A stretch of DNA of 42,544 nucleotides, from the NCBI GenBank assembly GCA_937936615.1, contig CALDDN010000072.1:1-42544 (forward strand), read 5' to 3'. Source of the stretch: an uncultured Bacteroidia bacterium (GTDB lineage: Bacteria; Bacteroidota; Bacteroidia; J057; CALDDN01). Both the position numbers and the translations under genes were made by a program. Positions 9,708 through 38,129 of the stretch are shown here, piece by piece (the stretch's first letter is position 1; every line of letters begins with the position of its first letter). The notes under the pieces were generated by a model, which was not told the origin of the DNA, made no database searches, and was given only the letters and a program-made list of their open reading frames with translations.

Positions 9708-10559
9708 CTAGCGCGTGTTCCTGAGCCAGGCTGCCAGCGTTTCGATGACTTCGGCGCGGCCAATCTCATTGAACAGTTCGTGAAAGAAGCCCTCGAAGTG
9801 GACATGCTGCACGCTCACGCGCTGATCCAGCTTGTTGAGGAACTGCCGCGTGCGGCCTGTATCGGCCAAGCGGTCGTCGCCGGCCGTCATCACGAGCAGG
9901 GGCGTGCGAATTTTGTCGGCTTTCTTGAGGGCCAGGGACTGCTGCCGCAGCAGCTCCTCGAACCAGGCCGGAGTGGCCTTGCGGCGAATCAGCGGATCGG
10001 CGCGGTGAGCCGCGACAACTTCCGGATCGTGGCTCAGGTCTTCGGCCCGCAGGCCATTGTCGATGGCCAGGCGCGGGAGCAGGCCCACGGCAGTTTTCGA
10101 GAGCAGGCGTTTCCAGGCAGGCACCTCGGCAGCTATCCCCAGAAGCGGAGCCGAGAGCACGGCTCCTGTCAGGTTGCGGTCTACGGCCCGTTCCTGCAGG
10201 TAGCGTACTACCACCAGCCCCCCCATCGAGTGGCCCACCAGGTAGAGCGGCCCCATGACGCGGTCGGTCAGGTAAGTGAGCAAGGCTGCCAGGTCGTCGA
10301 GGTACTCGTCGAAATGGCGGATGTAGACCGATGCACCTGCACTTTGGCCGTGCCCGCGCAGATCGAGGGCGTAAGATGCATAGCCCAGGCGGGCAAAATC
10401 GGCCATGATTCGATGATAACGCTGGCGGTGTTCGAAGCCGCCATGCACCCAGACCAGCGTCGGAAAAGGCTCGTGGGCGTGGGTACGCTGGTGACTGCAG
10501 GCCAGGCGCGTGCCATCGGCCGATTTGAGGGCTACGGTTTCGACGGCAGGAACTTCCAT
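9708..10559 (-). CDS. Alpha/beta hydrolase, monoacylglycerol lipase / lysophospholipase-like
   Basis: A 283-residue serine hydrolase of the Hydrolase_4 type. The nucleophile elbow is GHSMGG (S111), the acid is in AGDDRLAD (probably D229) and the histidine is H260 in FEGFFHELFNE. HGGFEHRQRY near residue 39 provides the oxyanion HG motif, and LDLRGHGQS near 66 is typical of monoacylglycerol lipases. There is no signal peptide, so it is probably cytosolic and acts on monoacylglycerols or lysophospholipids. I chose the ATG at 10559 over a TTG two codons upstream. A -7-like box ends 3 nt before this ATG. The gene is followed by 266 bp that include the upstream region of the large protease. Confidence 0.9.
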   Translation of the reverse strand: MEVPAVETVALKSADGTRLACSHQRTHAHEPFPTLVWVHGGFEHRQRYHRIMADFARLGYASYALDLRGHGQSAGASVYIRHFDEYLDDLAALLTYLTDRVMGPLYLVGHSMGGLVVVRYLQERAVDRNLTGAVLSAPLLGIAAEVPAWKRLLSKTAVGLLPRLAIDNGLRAEDLSHDPEVVAAHRADPLIRRKATPAWFEELLRQQSLALKKADKIRTPLLVMTAGDDRLADTGRTRQFLNKLDQRVSVQHVHFEGFFHELFNEIGRAEVIETLAAWLRNTR

Positions 10560-28681: not shown

Positions 28682-31600
28682 TTACTCCACTACGATGCGC
28701 AGGGTTTCGTTACGGGTACCGCCAGCGATCCGCAGCAGGTAAACCCCTGCCGCCGCATCGGGCAGTTCCACGTGCAGGCTGGTGCTGCCCTCCGGCAGAC
28801 CACCACTCCAAATCCGCCGACCAAGCAGGTCATGAAGTTGTAGTGCAAGCTCTACAGGACTGGGGCTTTCGAGTTCCACAACAAACTGGCCGCGGTTGGG
28901 GTTGGGGTAGACACGAAGAGCAGGCGCAGCATCACCGGCAGCCGCCTGCAGGCGGGCGGGCAGCTGCACGAACTGCGGGCCGATCCACGGCGAGGGCAAC
29001 AGCCCCTGACAACGGCTGCGCACCCGAACCGAATACGTTACCGTAGGGCTGAGGCCAATCACCGAATAGGACACAGCCGCTGGGAAGGGTGGCGGATAGA
29101 CGGTATAGCTAAAGAGAACGTTGGTGCTCAGGTTTCGCACTTCGAGTTCGTAGGCAAAGGCACCAGCCACCGCAGGCCAGTTGGCTGTGAAGCCCTTCGA
29201 GTAGACACCGCTCAAGCTAAAATTCAGGGGTGCCGGACAGCTTGCACTCGATTCAATGATCACCGTCTGACAGGTCAGGAAGGGGCATTCGTGATCGGTG
29301 CTTTCGTAGCAGATGGTATACGTACCCGGTGCCAGACTGCCCGGATTGAAAACATTGCCCGTAATGCCCGGACCGCTGAACATACCCCCTGCGGGAGTGC
29401 CCGATAGCACCACAGGGCCATGTGTAACCGGATACTGGGTGGCCAGCCCGATGATGGTAGCCGGTGCCGGTACGACTAGCACAGTCGTCTGGGCGGTGTT
29501 GCTGCAGCCGGTGAGGCCGTCGGTAATGGTAACGGTGTAGGTGGTGGGGCTGGTCGGCTGCACGGCAACCTGGGCACCTGTCAGGTTGCCCGGTTCCCAA
29601 CGGAAGCTGTAGGGGCGCGAGGTCATGGGGCCGGTGTACTGGGCGCGGATTATTCCGGCATCGGCGCAACTCGCATGCTTCAGCGTACTGGCACTCAGGG
29701 GCGGGTTGGGCTGTACGCTCACCAGAACGGCAGCCGACGTGCTGCACGGCCCGTCGGTCAGCGTAACGGTATAGACCGTCGTGCTGGTCGGTGCCACGGT
29801 AACGGTCGGGCCGTTGAGGCTGCCCGGCTGCCAGACGAAGCTGCCCGGTCCGCTGGCAGCCAGCGTTACCGGTGCACCCGCACACGAAATGGCACTGGGG
29901 GTAAGCACCGTCAGCGGGGGCTTGCCCACCGATACGGTAACTGTATTGGCGGCGGTGCAGCCCTGGGCCGTGGTCGCCGTTACAGTGAAGGTCGTCGTCT
30001 GGTTTACAACCGTTTGAACCGAGGCCCCCGTCAGGTTGCCCGGCTGCCAGCGGTAGACATGCGAGCCGGTGGCCGACAGCGTTACCAAACCGGGCTGGCA
30101 GAGTGTCGTTGCGCTGGCGGTTGCGCTGAACGTAGGGCTGGGGTTGACGTTGACCGTTACCCGGGCCGTAGCGGTGCAGCTATTGGGGGCCAGACCAACT
30201 ACCGTGTAGACTGTCGTTGCAGACGGGTTGACCTGAATGCTCGATCCTGCCTGGTTGACGGGCTGCCAGAGGTAGGAACCTGCACCCGTTGCGCTGAGGG
30301 TCGTCGAGCCACCCGCACAGATCGCCTGCTGGCTCACGGCGGCCGTTACCGTAGGGGCCGTGAGCAGCGTTACCGTTACGGTCGCCGAGTTCGAACAGCC
30401 GTTGGTATCGAAGCCCCGCACGGTGTAGGTACGGGTTTGGTTCAGGCTGACCGTAACCGTCTGTCCCGTCAGATTTCCGGGTCGCCAGGTGTAGGTATCG
30501 GCACCGGTGGCCGAAAGCGTTACACTGCCCACAGGGCCGCAGACTTCTGCTGCGGAGGCCGATGCTGCGACCACCGGCAAGGGTAGCACGGTTACCGTAA
30601 CACCGGTGGTACTGGTGCAGCCGGTGGCGGTGGTTCCGCGCACGGTGTAGGTGGTGGTAGCTGCGGGGCGTTGGCTGAAGCTTTGCCGCGTGCCCCCAAC
30701 GGGGAACCAGCGGTAGGTGCTGGCACCGGCAGCCGAAATAATCGTGGGCTGACCCAGGCAGATTGTAGCCGGATTGGCCGTGGCAACCAGAGCCTGATCG
30801 CTGGCCAGCGGATCCACAGTAATTACCGCTGCATCCGAAACCGGTGTACAGACCCCATCGTCGATTGTCCAGGTGAAGATGTAGCTCTGACCCGGTACCA
30901 GCCCCGTTACCATTGAGCGGGGGTCGTTGAAATCAGCAATCACCGGCCCGGCTGGGCTGACCGACCACGTACCCGTACCAATTGCAGGCGTGTTGCCGTT
31001 GAGGCGGTAACTCGTCGCGCAGCTTGGGGCATTGCCGCCCGCATGGACTGCTGGCGGCTGCTGGGCGGTGATACAGGCCCAGTCGCTGTATACGGCGGCG
31101 CAGGGCGCATTCTGCACCTGTACGCGGTAGCAGGTCGTCTGGCTGATGTTCGTAGCCGTCAGGCAACTCGCGTTAAGATTGATTGGTATGGGATTGCTGA
31201 AGTTCACCGCATCGGTGGTCGATTCCCAGTTGATGATCAGACCGTTGAAGCCGGTCAGGCACAGGGTGGACGTGTTGGTTTCCGAAGCACATACCGTGGC
31301 TGCACCGTTCAGCGTACCGGCATCGCTGAGGGATTGAGTCGTAATGCAGACTGGCTGCGAGGGCACCTCGTTGCAGGCACCGTTGCGAACAACAGCCCGG
31401 AAACAGCGGTCTTCGGTAACGGCGGCAACACTCAGACTGGTCGAAAGGCTCGGTATGGGCTGTAGCGTTGCAAAGCCGTCGGTAGAAGTTTCCCAGCGCA
31501 CCACCGAACCCGTCTGACCCGACAACTCCAGCAGTCCGGAGGGGCTGCCCACACAAATCGTCCGGTCGGGCTGTACGATTCCACCCTGCGAAGGGGCATC

Positions 31601-34600
31601 GACCTGAATGCAGGCCGGTGTCGCATAAGCTTCAGCGCAGCCCCCATTACTGATTACGGCCCGATAGCAGGTACTGACCGGGGGCATCCCCGGGGAGTAG
31701 AAGGGCAAGGTATGGGCAATGGGTGTGGGCGCGGTGGCGAAGTTATCTAAGGACATTTCCCAGCGTACGACATCGCCCAGTTGTCCCGAAACGGCCAGCA
31801 GTGCAGCATTCTCCCCCTGGCAGATGGTCTGGTCGCTGCTGGCCATACCTCCGACCGAGCGCGGAATCACATTCACGCAGTGCGTTTGGGAATAGACCGG
31901 ATTGCAGGGCCCCACCAGAAAGCGGAAACAGTAGCTGGAGGCGACAGCCCATTCAACCGGGCTATACGTAAACGAGGGACTGGCTGTAGAAGCATTGGCA
32001 TCGATAGGGAACCAGCTACTTCCTCCGTCGGTCGAAACGAATGCCTCCTGGATTTCGCCCGTGTAGCCGACATTCGAAATCGTTACCGAAGTCCCCGAGC
32101 AGGCGGTCGCAGGGCCATTTGCGTTCCCGCCGACCGCATCGGGCAGCACCTCGACGCTCCGGCAGCCCGGTGCACTGGGGCAGGTAGCTCCGAGCTGCAC
32201 CGCACAGAAGGTGTAGGTTCCGCTTTGTGTGGGCACATAGCTGCTGATGGGATTCGGCGAAGGCAAAGGACTGATCGGGCTGTTGTCGGGTGCTGTACCC
32301 GACCATTGGTACGTGGGCGGCGGGCTGGGAACTGCGGGTACGCCCGTCAGGTTGATGGGCTGGCCCAAACAATAGCGCGAGCGGTCGAAACCGATCCCCG
32401 GAGGCGGCGGAGTCGTCGGGTCATACTGAATGCAGACCGGTGCCCGCGGGGTCAGGCAGCCCCCCTGCGAGACCTCCAGCCAGTAGCACTGGCCATCGGA
32501 GGTTGGCGTAACGGTCAGAGTCTGGTCGATATTGAGTGGAAGAGCGTTAATCGATGGCACGGCGGTCGCTGTATTGTACCAGCGCACCAGCCCCGTAGCC
32601 GGTGAAGCCACCGCCAGATCAACCGAATTGCCTGGGCAGATCGGCGCGGGCTGAACCGGTACCGGTGCCGGCAAGTCCTGGACGATCACCGCAACCGGTG
32701 TCGGCGCACTGATGCAGCCATTTGAATCGTCGCTGCGCACGTAAACGGTTGCCGTTCCTGCCGTAGAAGTGTTGTAAAGAATGCATTCATGCACCCTGGT
32801 CCAGGGGCCGGGAATTAACGTAGTGGGCGAATCGTACCATTCGTACGTCAAAAGCGGATTAACCGAATCGATACAGACAAGGGGCTGAGGGCTGTTCTGG
32901 CCGGTGCAGAAAAGAACCGGACTGGTCGCCGGCGGGCCAGGCGGAATCGTCAGCACGACCGTTACGGCATTTCGAGCCGTACGACAGACGCCGGCTACGC
33001 CTTCCACGTAGAAAACATACGTTCCGGCGTTTGCAGGCAAACTGGTCAGGCAGGTACTGTTGCCCTGAACCAGATTCCCGCCGGTTGGCGCGTCGTACCA
33101 GTCGTAAGTCAGATTCGGGTCTACATGCTCCACGCAAACCTGCGCATTGAACTGACCGACACAAAAGCTGGCATTGCTGACTGCCGGTGGGGTCGTATCG
33201 AAGATCGTTACCTGCACCTCGGCCGTAGCCGTGCAAACCGACTGCGTGCCCGTAACGGTATAGGTTTGAGCAACCAGCGGGTTGACTGTAACGCTGCTGC
33301 CGCTCAGGTTGCCCGGCTGCCACTCGTAGGTATCAGCCCCTGTAGCGGTCAAGGTGGCGGGATCGCCGGGCAGGCAAAGTACCGAGGGATTGGCCGTAAC
33401 CCCCAGATTCAAGTTGTTGGTAACCGTTACGGTCGTGGTGGCCGAGGACGTGCAGCCGTTGGCATCGGTAGCCGTCAGCGTGTAGGTTGTCGACGATAAG
33501 GGGTTGACCACAACTGGAGAACCGCTCAGTGTCCCGGGTTCCCAGGCATAGCTCACGGCACCTGAAGCCGTAAGCTCCGACGGATTGCCCGGACAAAGGG
33601 TCGTAGGCGGATCAGCCAATGCCGTAACGGATGGCCCCGTACCGAAGTTGAGCTGAACGGGTGGCGAGGTCGCCACACAGGCCCCGTTGCGAGCAACCAC
33701 GTGGTATTCGCCTGCGACCGTCGCCGTAAAACTTGTTGCTTTTGCCCCGGTAATGGGGTTGCCGTCGCGGAACCACTGGTAGACGCAGTTGGTACAGGAA
33801 GGGGTCGTAAAGACCTGGCTGGTAGCCGGTGCGCAGACGGTTACCACCGGTCCGGGCGGTGAAGTCAGGGCCTCTACGGTGATGTTGGGCAGGCAGGTTG
33901 CCGCATTGAAGCGGGTGCGGATGCGGTCGCCAGGTTGCGGACCAAAACCCAGATTCAGATCGATGCCGATACCTGATTTGGTATGGCAATACGACATAAT
34001 GGTACCCTTGAAGGGTGGTACCGGATTGGGCGGCTGGGTGCAGGGACCTTCCACAGGATAGCAGCCATCGATGGCTCCCCCAACCCACCCGCAGTTATGG
34101 GTGTGTTGTGAGCCGAAATTATGTCCCAGCTCGTGCGAGATCACCAAGACATTCCAGGTGTAATACGGGGTCGGAAAAGGCAGCGTAGGCAGGGTGTTGT
34201 TCATGTTGCAGGATACGCCCGAGCGGAAGCGGCGTGCCGCGCAAAGCACATTCAAATAGGCCCGACCACCGCCCGCGCTTTTGCGGGAAACCACATGCAG
34301 CAGGTTCCAGGTGCCAGCTCGCGTATCGGCATACGTGTTGGCCACATTCAGGAAACTGGCTGTTGTCGTGCAGGTGTCCCAGGGGCAGGTCGCCTTGGCT
34401 TCCATGATATCGATGCCCCAGATGTTTACGGTTATGTCTTCCTGCTGAAAAACAAATTTAACGGCATTAAAAATACTGGTAATCCAGTTTGTAGCCGCTG
34501 CATTGGATGCGTAAAGGTTGCGGGTATGGAAGTCGATGACGAAAAGAATGCCCACTTCCTTGCACGTGGTGCTGGTCAGGGTCTGGGTGTCGTCAGTTTT

Positions 34601-35296
34601 GTTCGGCCCGGGCGGATGCAGGTTCTCCGACAGGTCGCTGCAGATCTGTCCAAAGTAGCCCGGAACCTCCATCGTCTGGAACATCGCCTGATCGCCGTAG
34701 CCCAGCGTCCGGTAGGGCGAGTCGGGGATACCGCCCATAACCCAGGTCTGACCGCCAAGGAAGAGCAGCCCCACCCACTCGTCGGGTATGAACGAAAGGG
34801 CCAACCGATCAGCCGTCCGAATCCGGCCATTAGGGGCCAGCACATACCCCATGTAGTACGCACCCTCGAACTGCTGGCCCGTACCCGTGGCTCCGTTCAT
34901 CAACGAGCTGGCTTCCAGGTAGAGCCGCAGGGTACTGTCGTGGGCGACGGGCACCTCGACGACCAGCTGGCGGGGCTTTTGCTGCAGAATCTGCTGCCAT
35001 TGTCCGAAGTTTCGCTGCAACACCAGCGCGGGTGCCGACTGGTTGGGGTCGTCGGGCAAGGTCAGAACCTCGCGGCGCGAGGTGGCCTCAAAAGGGCGGT
35101 AGAGCGGCACATCCTGCTGGAGCTCGCAGCCGGGAGCCGTTCGTTCACCCGGACAAGGCAGGAAAACGCGCAGCTGTGGGCCAGCAGCCCCCACCGATCC
35201 GCCCTGGGCATAGACCCGAGCACCCCATACAAGCAAGAACAAGGGCAGCAGCCTGCTCAATCGCAGCAGCCGTTGGAAAGCGTAATTGGAATTCAT
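28682..35296 (-). CDS. Giant secreted reprolysin-like metalloprotease with Ig-like repeats, FN3 and T9SS sorting domain
   Basis: A 2204-residue paralogue of the protease at 3862-9441. A signal peptide (~1-31, LLPLFLLVWGARVYAQ) is followed by a propeptide with the shared pattern VPLYRPFEATSRREVL and LGYGDQAMFQ. The metzincin zinc site is HELGHNFGSQH (H388, E389, H392, H398) with the Met-turn GTIMSYC. C-terminal to the protease are an Ig-like domain, two repeats of the TYEWQPGNLSGS type (~558-700), a long stretch of diverged Ig-like modules (~700-1500) with AVVRNGAC-like segments, a second block of about six repeats (~1500-1940), FN3 (~2018-2100) and a type A sorting domain (LRVYPNPNRGQFVVEL) ending ETLRIVVE. 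The substrate is unknown. The LamG-like domain of the first paralogue is absent. Confidence 0.92.
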   Translation of the reverse strand: MNSNYAFQRLLRLSRLLPLFLLVWGARVYAQGGSVGAAGPQLRVFLPCPGERTAPGCELQQDVPLYRPFEATSRREVLTLPDDPNQSAPALVLQRNFGQWQQILQQKPRQLVVEVPVAHDSTLRLYLEASSLMNGATGTGQQFEGAYYMGYVLAPNGRIRTADRLALSFIPDEWVGLLFLGGQTWVMGGIPDSPYRTLGYGDQAMFQTMEVPGYFGQICSDLSENLHPPGPNKTDDTQTLTSTTCKEVGILFVIDFHTRNLYASNAAATNWITSIFNAVKFVFQQEDITVNIWGIDIMEAKATCPWDTCTTTASFLNVANTYADTRAGTWNLLHVVSRKSAGGGRAYLNVLCAARRFRSGVSCNMNNTLPTLPFPTPYYTWNVLVISHELGHNFGSQHTHNCGWVGGAIDGCYPVEGPCTQPPNPVPPFKGTIMSYCHTKSGIGIDLNLGFGPQPGDRIRTRFNAATCLPNITVEALTSPPGPVVTVCAPATSQVFTTPSCTNCVYQWFRDGNPITGAKATSFTATVAGEYHVVARNGACVATSPPVQLNFGTGPSVTALADPPTTLCPGNPSELTASGAVSYAWEPGTLSGSPVVVNPLSSTTYTLTATDANGCTSSATTTVTVTNNLNLGVTANPSVLCLPGDPATLTATGADTYEWQPGNLSGSSVTVNPLVAQTYTVTGTQSVCTATAEVQVTIFDTTPPAVSNASFCVGQFNAQVCVEHVDPNLTYDWYDAPTGGNLVQGNSTCLTSLPANAGTYVFYVEGVAGVCRTARNAVTVVLTIPPGPPATSPVLFCTGQNSPQPLVCIDSVNPLLTYEWYDSPTTLIPGPWTRVHECILYNTSTAGTATVYVRSDDSNGCISAPTPVAVIVQDLPAPVPVQPAPICPGNSVDLAVASPATGLVRWYNTATAVPSINALPLNIDQTLTVTPTSDGQCYWLEVSQGGCLTPRAPVCIQYDPTTPPPPGIGFDRSRYCLGQPINLTGVPAVPSPPPTYQWSGTAPDNSPISPLPSPNPISSYVPTQSGTYTFCAVQLGATCPSAPGCRSVEVLPDAVGGNANGPATACSGTSVTISNVGYTGEIQEAFVSTDGGSSWFPIDANASTASPSFTYSPVEWAVASSYCFRFLVGPCNPVYSQTHCVNVIPRSVGGMASSDQTICQGENAALLAVSGQLGDVVRWEMSLDNFATAPTPIAHTLPFYSPGMPPVSTCYRAVISNGGCAEAYATPACIQVDAPSQGGIVQPDRTICVGSPSGLLELSGQTGSVVRWETSTDGFATLQPIPSLSTSLSVAAVTEDRCFRAVVRNGACNEVPSQPVCITTQSLSDAGTLNGAATVCASETNTSTLCLTGFNGLIINWESTTDAVNFSNPIPINLNASCLTATNISQTTCYRVQVQNAPCAAVYSDWACITAQQPPAVHAGGNAPSCATSYRLNGNTPAIGTGTWSVSPAGPVIADFNDPRSMVTGLVPGQSYIFTWTIDDGVCTPVSDAAVITVDPLASDQALVATANPATICLGQPTIISAAGASTYRWFPVGGTRQSFSQRPAATTTYTVRGTTATGCTSTTGVTVTVLPLPVVAASASAAEVCGPVGSVTLSATGADTYTWRPGNLTGQTVTVSLNQTRTYTVRGFDTNGCSNSATVTVTLLTAPTVTAAVSQQAICAGGSTTLSATGAGSYLWQPVNQAGSSIQVNPSATTVYTVVGLAPNSCTATARVTVNVNPSPTFSATASATTLCQPGLVTLSATGSHVYRWQPGNLTGASVQTVVNQTTTFTVTATTAQGCTAANTVTVSVGKPPLTVLTPSAISCAGAPVTLAASGPGSFVWQPGSLNGPTVTVAPTSTTVYTVTLTDGPCSTSAAVLVSVQPNPPLSASTLKHASCADAGIIRAQYTGPMTSRPYSFRWEPGNLTGAQVAVQPTSPTTYTVTITDGLTGCSNTAQTTVLVVPAPATIIGLATQYPVTHGPVVLSGTPAGGMFSGPGITGNVFNPGSLAPGTYTICYESTDHECPFLTCQTVIIESSASCPAPLNFSLSGVYSKGFTANWPAVAGAFAYELEVRNLSTNVLFSYTVYPPPFPAAVSYSVIGLSPTVTYSVRVRSRCQGLLPSPWIGPQFVQLPARLQAAAGDAAPALRVYPNPNRGQFVVELESPSPVELALQLHDLLGRRIWSGGLPEGSTSLHVELPDAAAGVYLLRIAGGTRNETLRIVVE
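29470..30790 (-). repeat. Second block of tandem coding repeats in the 2204-residue protease
   Basis: About six modules of roughly 70-75 residues resemble those of the 1859-residue paralogue (TYTWRPGNLTGQ, YRWQPGNLTGAS, FVWQPGSLNGPT). A further pair lies at about 33195-33620. The boundaries are approximate. Confidence 0.75.
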
Positions 35297-36591: not shown

Positions 36592-37373
36592 TCAATACTC
36601 ATGTACTTCCTCAAAAAGACTGGGATAGGCTTTCTGCCGGAGTCTGAATTTGGTACCGTGGTTGTGGCCGGTTCGGGCATCAAAATCAATGAGGACCTCA
36701 CCAGCCTGTATGGCATTGAGAAAAGATTTTTTAGAAAAAAAACGCAGGGTCAAAATGCGATCGATTCGAAAATGTTCTACACCATTTATTTTATTGCTTT
36801 CTACTTGGACAAAAAGGTGTTATGTAGTTTTGTTCCAGCTTTGAAAAACAAATCATCGTAACCCCAATAAGGCTGTGGGCTTAGCTCACCCAATCCGATT
36901 CGTTGTTCCACCGAATCGAGCCATGGCTGATGTTTGGCTGCAACACGGCCAGCATCGAACGTAATTTCCACCCGCTGCAAATTATCATTTAGCCAAACAG
37001 CAAAACCTCGGTCGGAAGGTTGTCGGCAGCTGATTGTTTGTCGAAAACTCATTTCATTTTCGGGATACTTACGGCCTGCATGCGGATGCAACCAGCCGTA
37101 GCAGGGCAATAAAATTTGGGGAACGAATCGAAACGAAGTGGGGGATGGTTCCAAATGAAATAATGTGATCAACGAGTTGGTTTGGATGCGCTGGGTTTTA
37201 AGTTCCCATTCACTGGCATTGGGTAGAGGCAAGTTGTTTTCTTCTATACCCAGTAAAGATTCTAAAGTATTTCGTATACCCCCTGAGTTTGAAGGACGTA
37301 TACTTGGTATCCAAGCTTTTGACTGAATTTTTTTGAGCTCATCAACTAATGATTCTTTGGTAAAAATCTTCAT
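36592..37373 (-). pseudogene. MvaI/BcnI-type restriction endonuclease, interrupted by a frameshift
   Basis: The intact N-terminal frame (190 residues, 37373 down to 36801) begins MKIFTKESLV and contains GGIRNTLESLLGIEENNLPL and WELKTQR, the E-x-K part of the PD-(D/E)XK active site. The frame stops at 36801, but the shifted frame continues for about 70 residues down to a stop at 36592. That part includes VLIDFDARTGHNHGTKFRLR, a conserved C-terminal block of this family. The shift lies at a run of five A residues (36811-36815, T5 on the coding strand); one more base would restore a 260-residue protein, near the 238-249 of BcnI and MvaI. The gene is AT-rich relative to its neighbours and starts 3 bp after the methylase stop. 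Confidence 0.85.
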
Positions 37374-37376
37374 TCT

Positions 37377-38129
37377 TCATTGATCAGAGAAAAGCGATTG
37401 ATTTTGCTGGGCCAGAAACTCGGCGATTCGCTGGTTGGCCACGTTAACATAAGTCGCCGATATCTCAAAACCAATGTAGTTGCGCTGATTCATTAGTGCC
37501 GCGATGGCTGTCGTACCCGACCCCATGAAAGGATCGAGCACCAGCTGAGCGTCGGTCGAGGAAATGATCCGGTGAATCAGCGGCACCGGAAAAGGTGCCG
37601 GGTGCGGATTCTTCATCTCCTGAGGAAATTCCCAGATGTCGGTGTGGGCATTGGCTTTGGGTACGAGCTTGAAATCGGGCTTGGCAAACAGGTATATGAC
37701 TTCGAAGGTGGGCAGGAAGTAACCCGGATTGAAATTAATCCCTCCGGCCCGCTTCCAGATGATGATCTGCCGGAGCGGAAAGCCTTCGATGATTTCGCGC
37801 CGGTCCTGGAGCAGGCCGGCCTGGACCCGCCACTTGTGGTTGTAGAAGACAGCCCCCGTGGGCTTGGTCAGGCGGAGCATTTCAGTCAGGCAGGCCCGCT
37901 GCCACTCGACGTATTCATCGTAGGGCATGCAGTCGTCGTAGGTCGCATACCCGTTTACCAGAGCCGCGTTTGCCCACTTGCCACCCCGCCCGTCTTTCAT
38001 TCCGTTTCCGGTTGAATTCTTCAGGTTATAGGGGGGCGAGGTTACGACCAGATCGACACAGGCATCGGGCAAGGCCTGCATACCAGACAGGCAATCACCC
38101 AAAATGATCCGGTTGATGTAGCTGTCCAT
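37377..38129 (-). CDS. DNA methyltransferase, beta-class, probably N4-cytosine-specific
   Basis: A 250-residue modification enzyme that transfers a methyl group from S-adenosylmethionine to the exocyclic amino group of a base. The catalytic motif IV, TSPPYNL (30-36), comes first and the cofactor motif I, DPFMGSGTT (199-207), near the C-terminus, which is the beta order. The SPPY form of motif IV favours N4-methylcytosine, as in the known MvaI and BcnI methylases. The target is not readable from the sequence; the partner suggests a CC(W or S)GG-type site. It precedes the nuclease by 3 bp on the same strand, so methylase is made first. A -7-like box TAAATTG ends 4 nt before the ATG. Confidence 0.9.
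   Translation of the reverse strand: MDSYINRIILGDCLSGMQALPDACVDLVVTSPPYNLKNSTGNGMKDGRGGKWANAALVNGYATYDDCMPYDEYVEWQRACLTEMLRLTKPTGAVFYNHKWRVQAGLLQDRREIIEGFPLRQIIIWKRAGGINFNPGYFLPTFEVIYLFAKPDFKLVPKANAHTDIWEFPQEMKNPHPAPFPVPLIHRIISSTDAQLVLDPFMGSGTTAIAALMNQRNYIGFEISATYVNVANQRIAEFLAQQNQSLFSDQ

What the first reader, a model, noticed from the sequence alone, without database searches (positions are those of the whole stretch)
36592..37373. MvaI-like restriction enzyme broken by a one-base slip in a homopolymer
The first 190 codons stop at 36801, yet about 70 further family-typical codons, including the FDARTGHNHGTKFRLR block, lie intact in the next frame. The two frames meet at a run of five identical bases (36811-36815); six would restore a 260-residue enzyme. 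Either the gene is inactivated, or it is switched by slipped-strand mispairing, or the read has a homopolymer error. The uneroded downstream part suggests a recent or reversible event.
Basis: seen in the sequence. Interest (0 to 1): 0.6.

Follow-up and report, generated by a model that had tools for sequence, protein, structure and literature searches.

The report
Frameshifted restriction enzyme beside intact methylase
A bacterial restriction enzyme gene next to its intact protective methylase is split by a one-base frame slip and has also lost two otherwise invariant residues, so it is most likely an ordinary decaying enzyme and not a switch.

Summary
On the minus strand, directly after an intact N4/N6 DNA methyltransferase (37377-38129), lies a MvaI/BcnI-family restriction gene. 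Its first 190 codons (37373-36801) and last ~71 codons (to 36592) are in different frames that meet at a T5 run (A5 on +, 36811-36815). About 50 intact relatives hold both parts in one frame. Seven relatives have a TTT TTT pair exactly there, so the window is one base short.

T5 is too short and too common to be a slippage switch. The gene's long T8 tract (36735-36742) lies elsewhere and does not break the frame. The upstream half carries G20A and G34R, two glycines invariant in all 82 other sequences checked, MvaI and BcnI included. The downstream part is not clearly eroded (z = -1.1). A survey of 1.26 Mb of the same MAG found only 2-3 genuine intragenic shifts, so systematic homopolymer error is unlikely, but a single read or assembly error cannot be excluded without reads.

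Best explanation: an inactivated, decaying R gene beside a retained M gene, a known fate seen again in at least seven relatives. Interest is low. Side findings: Asn replaces the catalytic Asp across most of the family, and M partners come in two circularly permuted types.

The parts
37377..38129 (-). DNA methyltransferase M, 250 aa, intact, motif order TSPPY ... DPFMGSGT (beta-type order)
   Evidence: PF01555 E 9e-42; best PDB hit 8s9n, a DNA cytosine-N4 methyltransferase, E 1.2e-41; PADLOC MTase_II E 1.8e-113
36801..37373 (-). N-terminal 190 codons of the MvaI/BcnI-family restriction gene R, ending in a premature TAG; holds PN...ExK (N52, E57, K59) and G20A, G34R
   Evidence: PF15515 E 6.7e-36; PADLOC REase_II E 1.2e-63
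36811..36815 (-). T5 run (A5 on + strand) where the two frames meet; one base short of the family frame
   Evidence: TTT TTT pair in L012, L039, L041, L046, L057, L058, L060
36592..36807 (-). C-terminal ~71 codons of R in another frame, with DFDARTGHNHGTKFR intact
   Evidence: PF15515 179-227 E 3.5e-5; 43-61% identity to close homologues
37272..37274 (-). codon 34 of R, CGA (Arg), at a glycine invariant in 82 of 82 other sequences
37314..37316 (-). codon 20 of R, GCT (Ala), at a glycine invariant in 82 of 82 other sequences
36735..36742 (-). T8 tract (A8 on +) inside the C part, the longest homopolymer in the gene; in frame with homologues, so not the cause of the break

Best explanation
This is a Type II restriction-modification cassette (M then R, 3 bp apart, same strand) inserted after pdxA, in which the restriction gene has been inactivated and is decaying while the methyltransferase is kept. 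A one-base loss in a short T run truncates R at 190 of ~261 residues. The product lacks the last ~70 residues, which form about four beta-strands and the family's DFDARTGHNHGTKFR block. Shown: the frame break, the intact M frame, intact homologues, and missense changes at two invariant glycines. Inferred: that the truncated protein is inactive, and that losing R first is tolerated because M alone is harmless.
For: Both parts hit one family in two frames; relatives read through in one frame. M is an intact 250-aa ORF with motifs TSPPY and DPFMGSGT. G20A and G34R fall at positions that are Gly in 72 of 72 and 10 of 10 further sequences. Among 55 subfamily members, breaking 2 or more otherwise invariant N-part columns goes with a disrupted gene (4 of 8 versus 3 of 47, Fisher P 0.006; small sample, alignment ends may contribute). 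At least seven other loci have a disrupted R beside an open M frame (L012, L028, L059, L067, L068=L013, L069, L070). The lost segment holds E199-213, H215-223, E227-234 and E237-245 in a good model of an intact homologue (pLDDT 88) that matches MvaI and BcnI. Frameshifted and eroded RM genes are reported within species, e.g. Mycoplasma agalactiae (PMC9465063).
Against: The C part is not clearly eroded (residual z -1.1, 9th lowest of 49). At conserved columns the window's 6 changes are within about one SD of what its divergence predicts, and its M gene is also the most deviant of 36 (7 of 119 columns), so the substitutions may reflect a generally diverged lineage. No reads were available to confirm the T5.
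Confidence: 0.72

Rival explanations
1. The break is a sequencing, assembly or strain-consensus error in a MAG and the gene is intact in the cell.
For: The source is a 56.7%-complete, 89-contig MAG; only one base differs; the C part is still family-like.
Against: A codon-model scan of 1.26 Mb of the same MAG, with 55/60 sensitivity to planted shifts, gave 26 filtered events. Of 14 read by hand, nearly all are ordinary gene overlaps and 2-3 are real shifts, so homopolymer errors are not systematic. G20A and G34R do not fit an intact, constrained gene. Caveat: the scan is tuned to GC-rich genes and did not flag this AT-rich R.
Confidence: 0.18
2. A phase-variable restriction gene, switched by slipped-strand mispairing in the T run.
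For: Slippage in homopolymers does switch RM genes, the cited cases being Type I and III (PMC12707154).
Against: The tract is only 5 bases, with 60 A5 or T5 runs in the 42.5-kb window. Relatives mostly lack the run (TTT TAT, TTC TAT). The gene's T8 tract is in frame. Two other invariant residues are changed.
Confidence: 0.05
3. The full enzyme is made by programmed -1 ribosomal frameshifting or transcriptional slippage.
For: A -1 slip near TTT TTG would join the two frames.
Against: C TTT TTG is not a canonical X XXY YYZ heptamer. The downstream RNA folds no better than shuffles (z +1.09). Nearly all relatives are read in one frame, so no recoding site is conserved.
Confidence: 0.02
4. The 190-aa truncated protein has its own function, for example DNA binding or regulation.
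For: The N part is well conserved and ends cleanly.
Against: It lacks the C-terminal strands of the fold seen in the homologue model; no conserved truncated class was seen, and the other truncated copies end at different places (54, 130, 135, 138, 148, 196, 231 aa).
Confidence: 0.03

Closest known systems
R.MvaI (2oa9/2oaa) and R.BcnI (2odh/2odi), monomeric PD-(D/E)xK Type II enzymes
   Same: Same Pfam family (PF15515). The model of an intact homologue matches 2oaa (E 4e-19, TM 0.78 by target) and 2odi (E 2.6e-14). ExK and the C-terminal HxHG block align.
   Different: The window gene is split. Its subfamily has Asn where MvaI and BcnI have the metal-binding Asp, plus a conserved acidic residue three positions on. 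The partner M sits directly upstream.
PADLOC PDLC03305, a 513-aa Type II profile with M then R in one chain
   Same: Window M matches 10-245 (E 1.8e-113) and window R matches 254-438 (E 8.4e-63).
   Different: In the window M and R are separate genes 3 bp apart, and R is broken.
Frameshifted or pseudogenised RM genes within species, e.g. Mycoplasma agalactiae (PMC9465063)
   Same: Frameshift mutations and erosion of MTase or REase genes.
   Different: There, strain comparisons and repeats show some to be phase variable; here there is one MAG and no repeat.

Membership tests
MvaI/BcnI restriction endonuclease family (PF15515) | profile match over the whole length | tested here: met
   N part 2-153 and C part 179-227, in two frames; the C part alone is 0.7 bit under the curated cut-off
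MvaI/BcnI restriction endonuclease family (PF15515) | MvaI/BcnI fold | tested here: met
   model of intact homologue L021, significant PDB hits MvaI and BcnI only; the window protein itself was not modelled
MvaI/BcnI restriction endonuclease family (PF15515) | PD...ExK catalytic motif | tested here: inconclusive
   E57 and K59 present; the Asp is Asn52, as in 63 of 70 genome loci and 7 of 10 viral-contig loci
MvaI/BcnI restriction endonuclease family (PF15515) | single open frame of about 230-270 aa | tested here: not met
   190 aa then stop
MvaI/BcnI restriction endonuclease family (PF15515) | cleaves a CCNGG-type site | not testable with these tools
   no biochemical data; specificity of the subfamily not found
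Functional Type II R-M system | intact M next to intact R | tested here: not met
   M intact, R split
Slipped-strand phase-variable gene | long simple repeat at the frame junction | tested here: not met
   T5 only
Slipped-strand phase-variable gene | length polymorphism within the population | not testable with these tools
   no reads; no genome of the same family held
Programmed -1 frameshift gene | slippery heptamer and stimulatory RNA structure, conserved in relatives | tested here: not met

The most novel reading that the evidence does not exclude
The break is one state of a reversible or recoded restriction switch: the cell keeps M on and makes active R only in a slipped subpopulation or by leaky -1 frameshifting, from a run of just five bases.
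Probability: 0.05. Interest if true: 0.5.

Novelty: new member of a known kind. Interest (0 to 1): 0.17.

Why it matters
It is one more clear case of restriction being lost before modification, leaving a solitary methylase that may still mark the genome. The comparison behind it shows the same outcome at least seven more times in one widely spread cassette, which makes the cassette a usable model for how RM systems die. The mechanism itself is not new.

Tried and rejected
A one-strand codon scan gave mainly antisense noise and was replaced by a two-strand scan. Codon composition of M and R was tried as a dating tool: GC3 of M is 0.71 and of R 0.40, far outside other cassettes (mean difference -0.01, SD 0.055). 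It cannot tell separate origins from relaxed selection, so it was not used as evidence for decay. A search for an empty site showed M17-pdxA to be syntenic in the order with no M, R or epimerase after pdxA, so the exact insertion ends were not defined. Plasmids hold only remote relatives (best full-length hit 37%) and phage records none; viral contigs hold 13. The MvaI structure paper was not held. No recognition site could be assigned to the subfamily. L028's shift was checked against near-identical L029: it is an insertion elsewhere, not the same tract.

Full report
OBSERVATION. The region reads as described. On the minus strand, ATG at 37373 opens 190 codons ending in TAG at 36801-36803. 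A second frame, open to 36592, holds VQVESNKINGVEHFRIDRILTLRFFSKKSFLNAIQAGEVLIDFDARTGHNHGTKFRLRQKAYPSLFEEVHEY. The first part hits PF15515 MvaI_BcnI at profile 2-153 (E 6.7e-36). The last 53 residues hit the same profile at 179-227 (E 3.5e-5). In the C frame a stop lies a few codons before the shared region and in the N frame the TAG lies just after it, so the change of frame is confined to about 20 bp around the T5 run.

RELATIVES. A scan of genome contigs gave 51 loci and searches of related genomes gave 19 more apart from the window's own. When N and C parts were searched separately, close relatives with both parts found had them in one frame, except L028 and L067. Seven relatives that also have Phe-Phe at the junction read TTT TTT there; the window reads TTT TTG. 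This fixes the event as the loss of one base in the T run, or its absence from the assembly.

SURROUNDINGS. The M gene (37377-38129) ends 3 bp before R. It is a PF01555 methyltransferase whose best solved relative is annotated as a DNA cytosine-N4 methyltransferase. R homologues of the close subfamily with enough flank have an M directly upstream in the same orientation. The cassette follows pdxA. In the same order the pair M17 peptidase - pdxA is conserved, without M or R after it, so the cassette is probably an acquisition in this lineage. R is AT-rich (G+C 0.43) against 0.59 for the window and 0.56 for M.

IS IT AN ERROR? The window comes from a 2.17-Mb, 89-contig, 56.7%-complete genome. 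A two-strand codon-Markov model with allowed frame changes was run on 1.26 Mb of it. It recovered 55 of 60 planted one-base deletions and left 26 events after removal of ordinary stop/start overlaps. Fourteen were read by eye: nearly all are two neighbouring genes. Real intragenic shifts are L131:9970 (a second methyltransferase gene) and probably L119:5285, with L126:682 undecided. That is about 2-3 per 1.1 Mb of coding sequence, so this is not an assembly full of homopolymer errors. The scan relies on host-like codon use and does not flag the AT-rich R itself, so the error rate in AT-rich genes is not measured. No reads were available.

IS IT A SWITCH OR RECODING? T5 is ordinary: the window has 32 A5 and 28 T5 runs and 188 runs of five or more of any base. 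Most relatives do not have a run at that place (TTT TAT, TTC TAT). The T8 tract at 36735-36742 is in the correct frame. There is no canonical slippery heptamer, no RNA structure beyond shuffles (z +1.09), and no conserved split in relatives.

HOW DECAYED IS IT? For the C part, identity to relatives given N-part identity is slightly low but normal (z -1.1, rank 9 of 49). The DFDARTGHNHGTKFR block is intact. In the N part, positions 20 and 34 are Ala and Arg; all 72 other sequences in one alignment (70 loci plus MvaI and BcnI fragments) and 10 of 10 viral-contig sequences have Gly at both. Only five N-part columns are otherwise invariant in the full set including remote homologues, and the window breaks two. 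Among subfamily members, two or more such breaks occur in 4 of 8 disrupted copies and 3 of 47 intact ones (Fisher P 0.006; small and exploratory). Against over-reading this, the window's M is also the most deviant of 36, so the whole cassette has diverged. I conclude that loss of function is older or deeper than a single reversible slip, at moderate confidence.

WHAT IS LOST. An AlphaFold2 model of an intact homologue (L021, mean pLDDT 88) matches only MvaI and BcnI in the PDB at E below 0.001. Residues beyond about 188 form most of a long hairpin, a helix and further strands, and carry the HNHG block that aligns with HDHG of MvaI and HDRG of BcnI. The truncated product is therefore not expected to be a working enzyme (inference).

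COMPARISON. At least seven other members have a broken R beside an open M frame: L012 nonsense, L028 one-base insertion at a different place, L067 two shifts, L068 (same as L013), L069, L070 and L059 truncated. Loss of R before M is a known route of RM decay (general knowledge), and frameshifted RM genes are reported (PMC9465063). The finding is a new instance of a known kind.

VERDICT. Observation confirmed. Inactivation is the best reading (0.72), read or assembly error second (0.18), switch or recoding unlikely.

Noticed in passing
window 37218-37220 (R codon 52) and L002-L071, L183-L194: In the M-linked subfamily the metal-binding Asp of PD...ExK is Asn (PNASEWELK) in 63 of 63 genome loci and 7 of 10 viral ones, with Glu or Asp three residues on wherever that stretch is present; MvaI, BcnI, 7 remote homologues and 3 viral-contig relatives (L189-L191) have Asp. 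This may be a relocated carboxylate in an active site.
   Followed up: partly
L005, L021, L022, L023, L025, L028, L049, L053, L067 versus L002, L006-L012, L024, L032, L039: The same R lineage is paired with two kinds of upstream methyltransferase that look circularly permuted relative to each other: window-M residues 165-235 come before 25-132 in one kind.
   Followed up: partly
L131:9418-10441 (G000:C60): A second PF01555 DNA methyltransferase gene of the same genome is split between two frames near 9970, so two of the few RM-type genes of this MAG are frameshifted.
   Followed up: partly
window 36592-38129: GC3 of M is 0.71 and of R 0.40; the difference of -0.31 is far outside the other cassettes compared (mean -0.01, SD 0.055), and M and R identities to relatives do not run parallel (r -0.21), so M and R may have different histories.
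   Followed up: partly
L012, L028, L059, L067, L068, L069, L070: Independent disruptions of R with an open M frame in other species.
   Followed up: partly
L183-L195: R relatives, most of them full-length, also lie on IMG/VR viral contigs, suggesting phage or provirus carriage.
   Followed up: no
window 28682-35296 (-): A 2204-aa protein with a HELGHNFGSQHTH metalloprotease motif, many repeated segments and what looks like a T9SS-type C-terminal sorting domain (seen in the translation).
   Followed up: no
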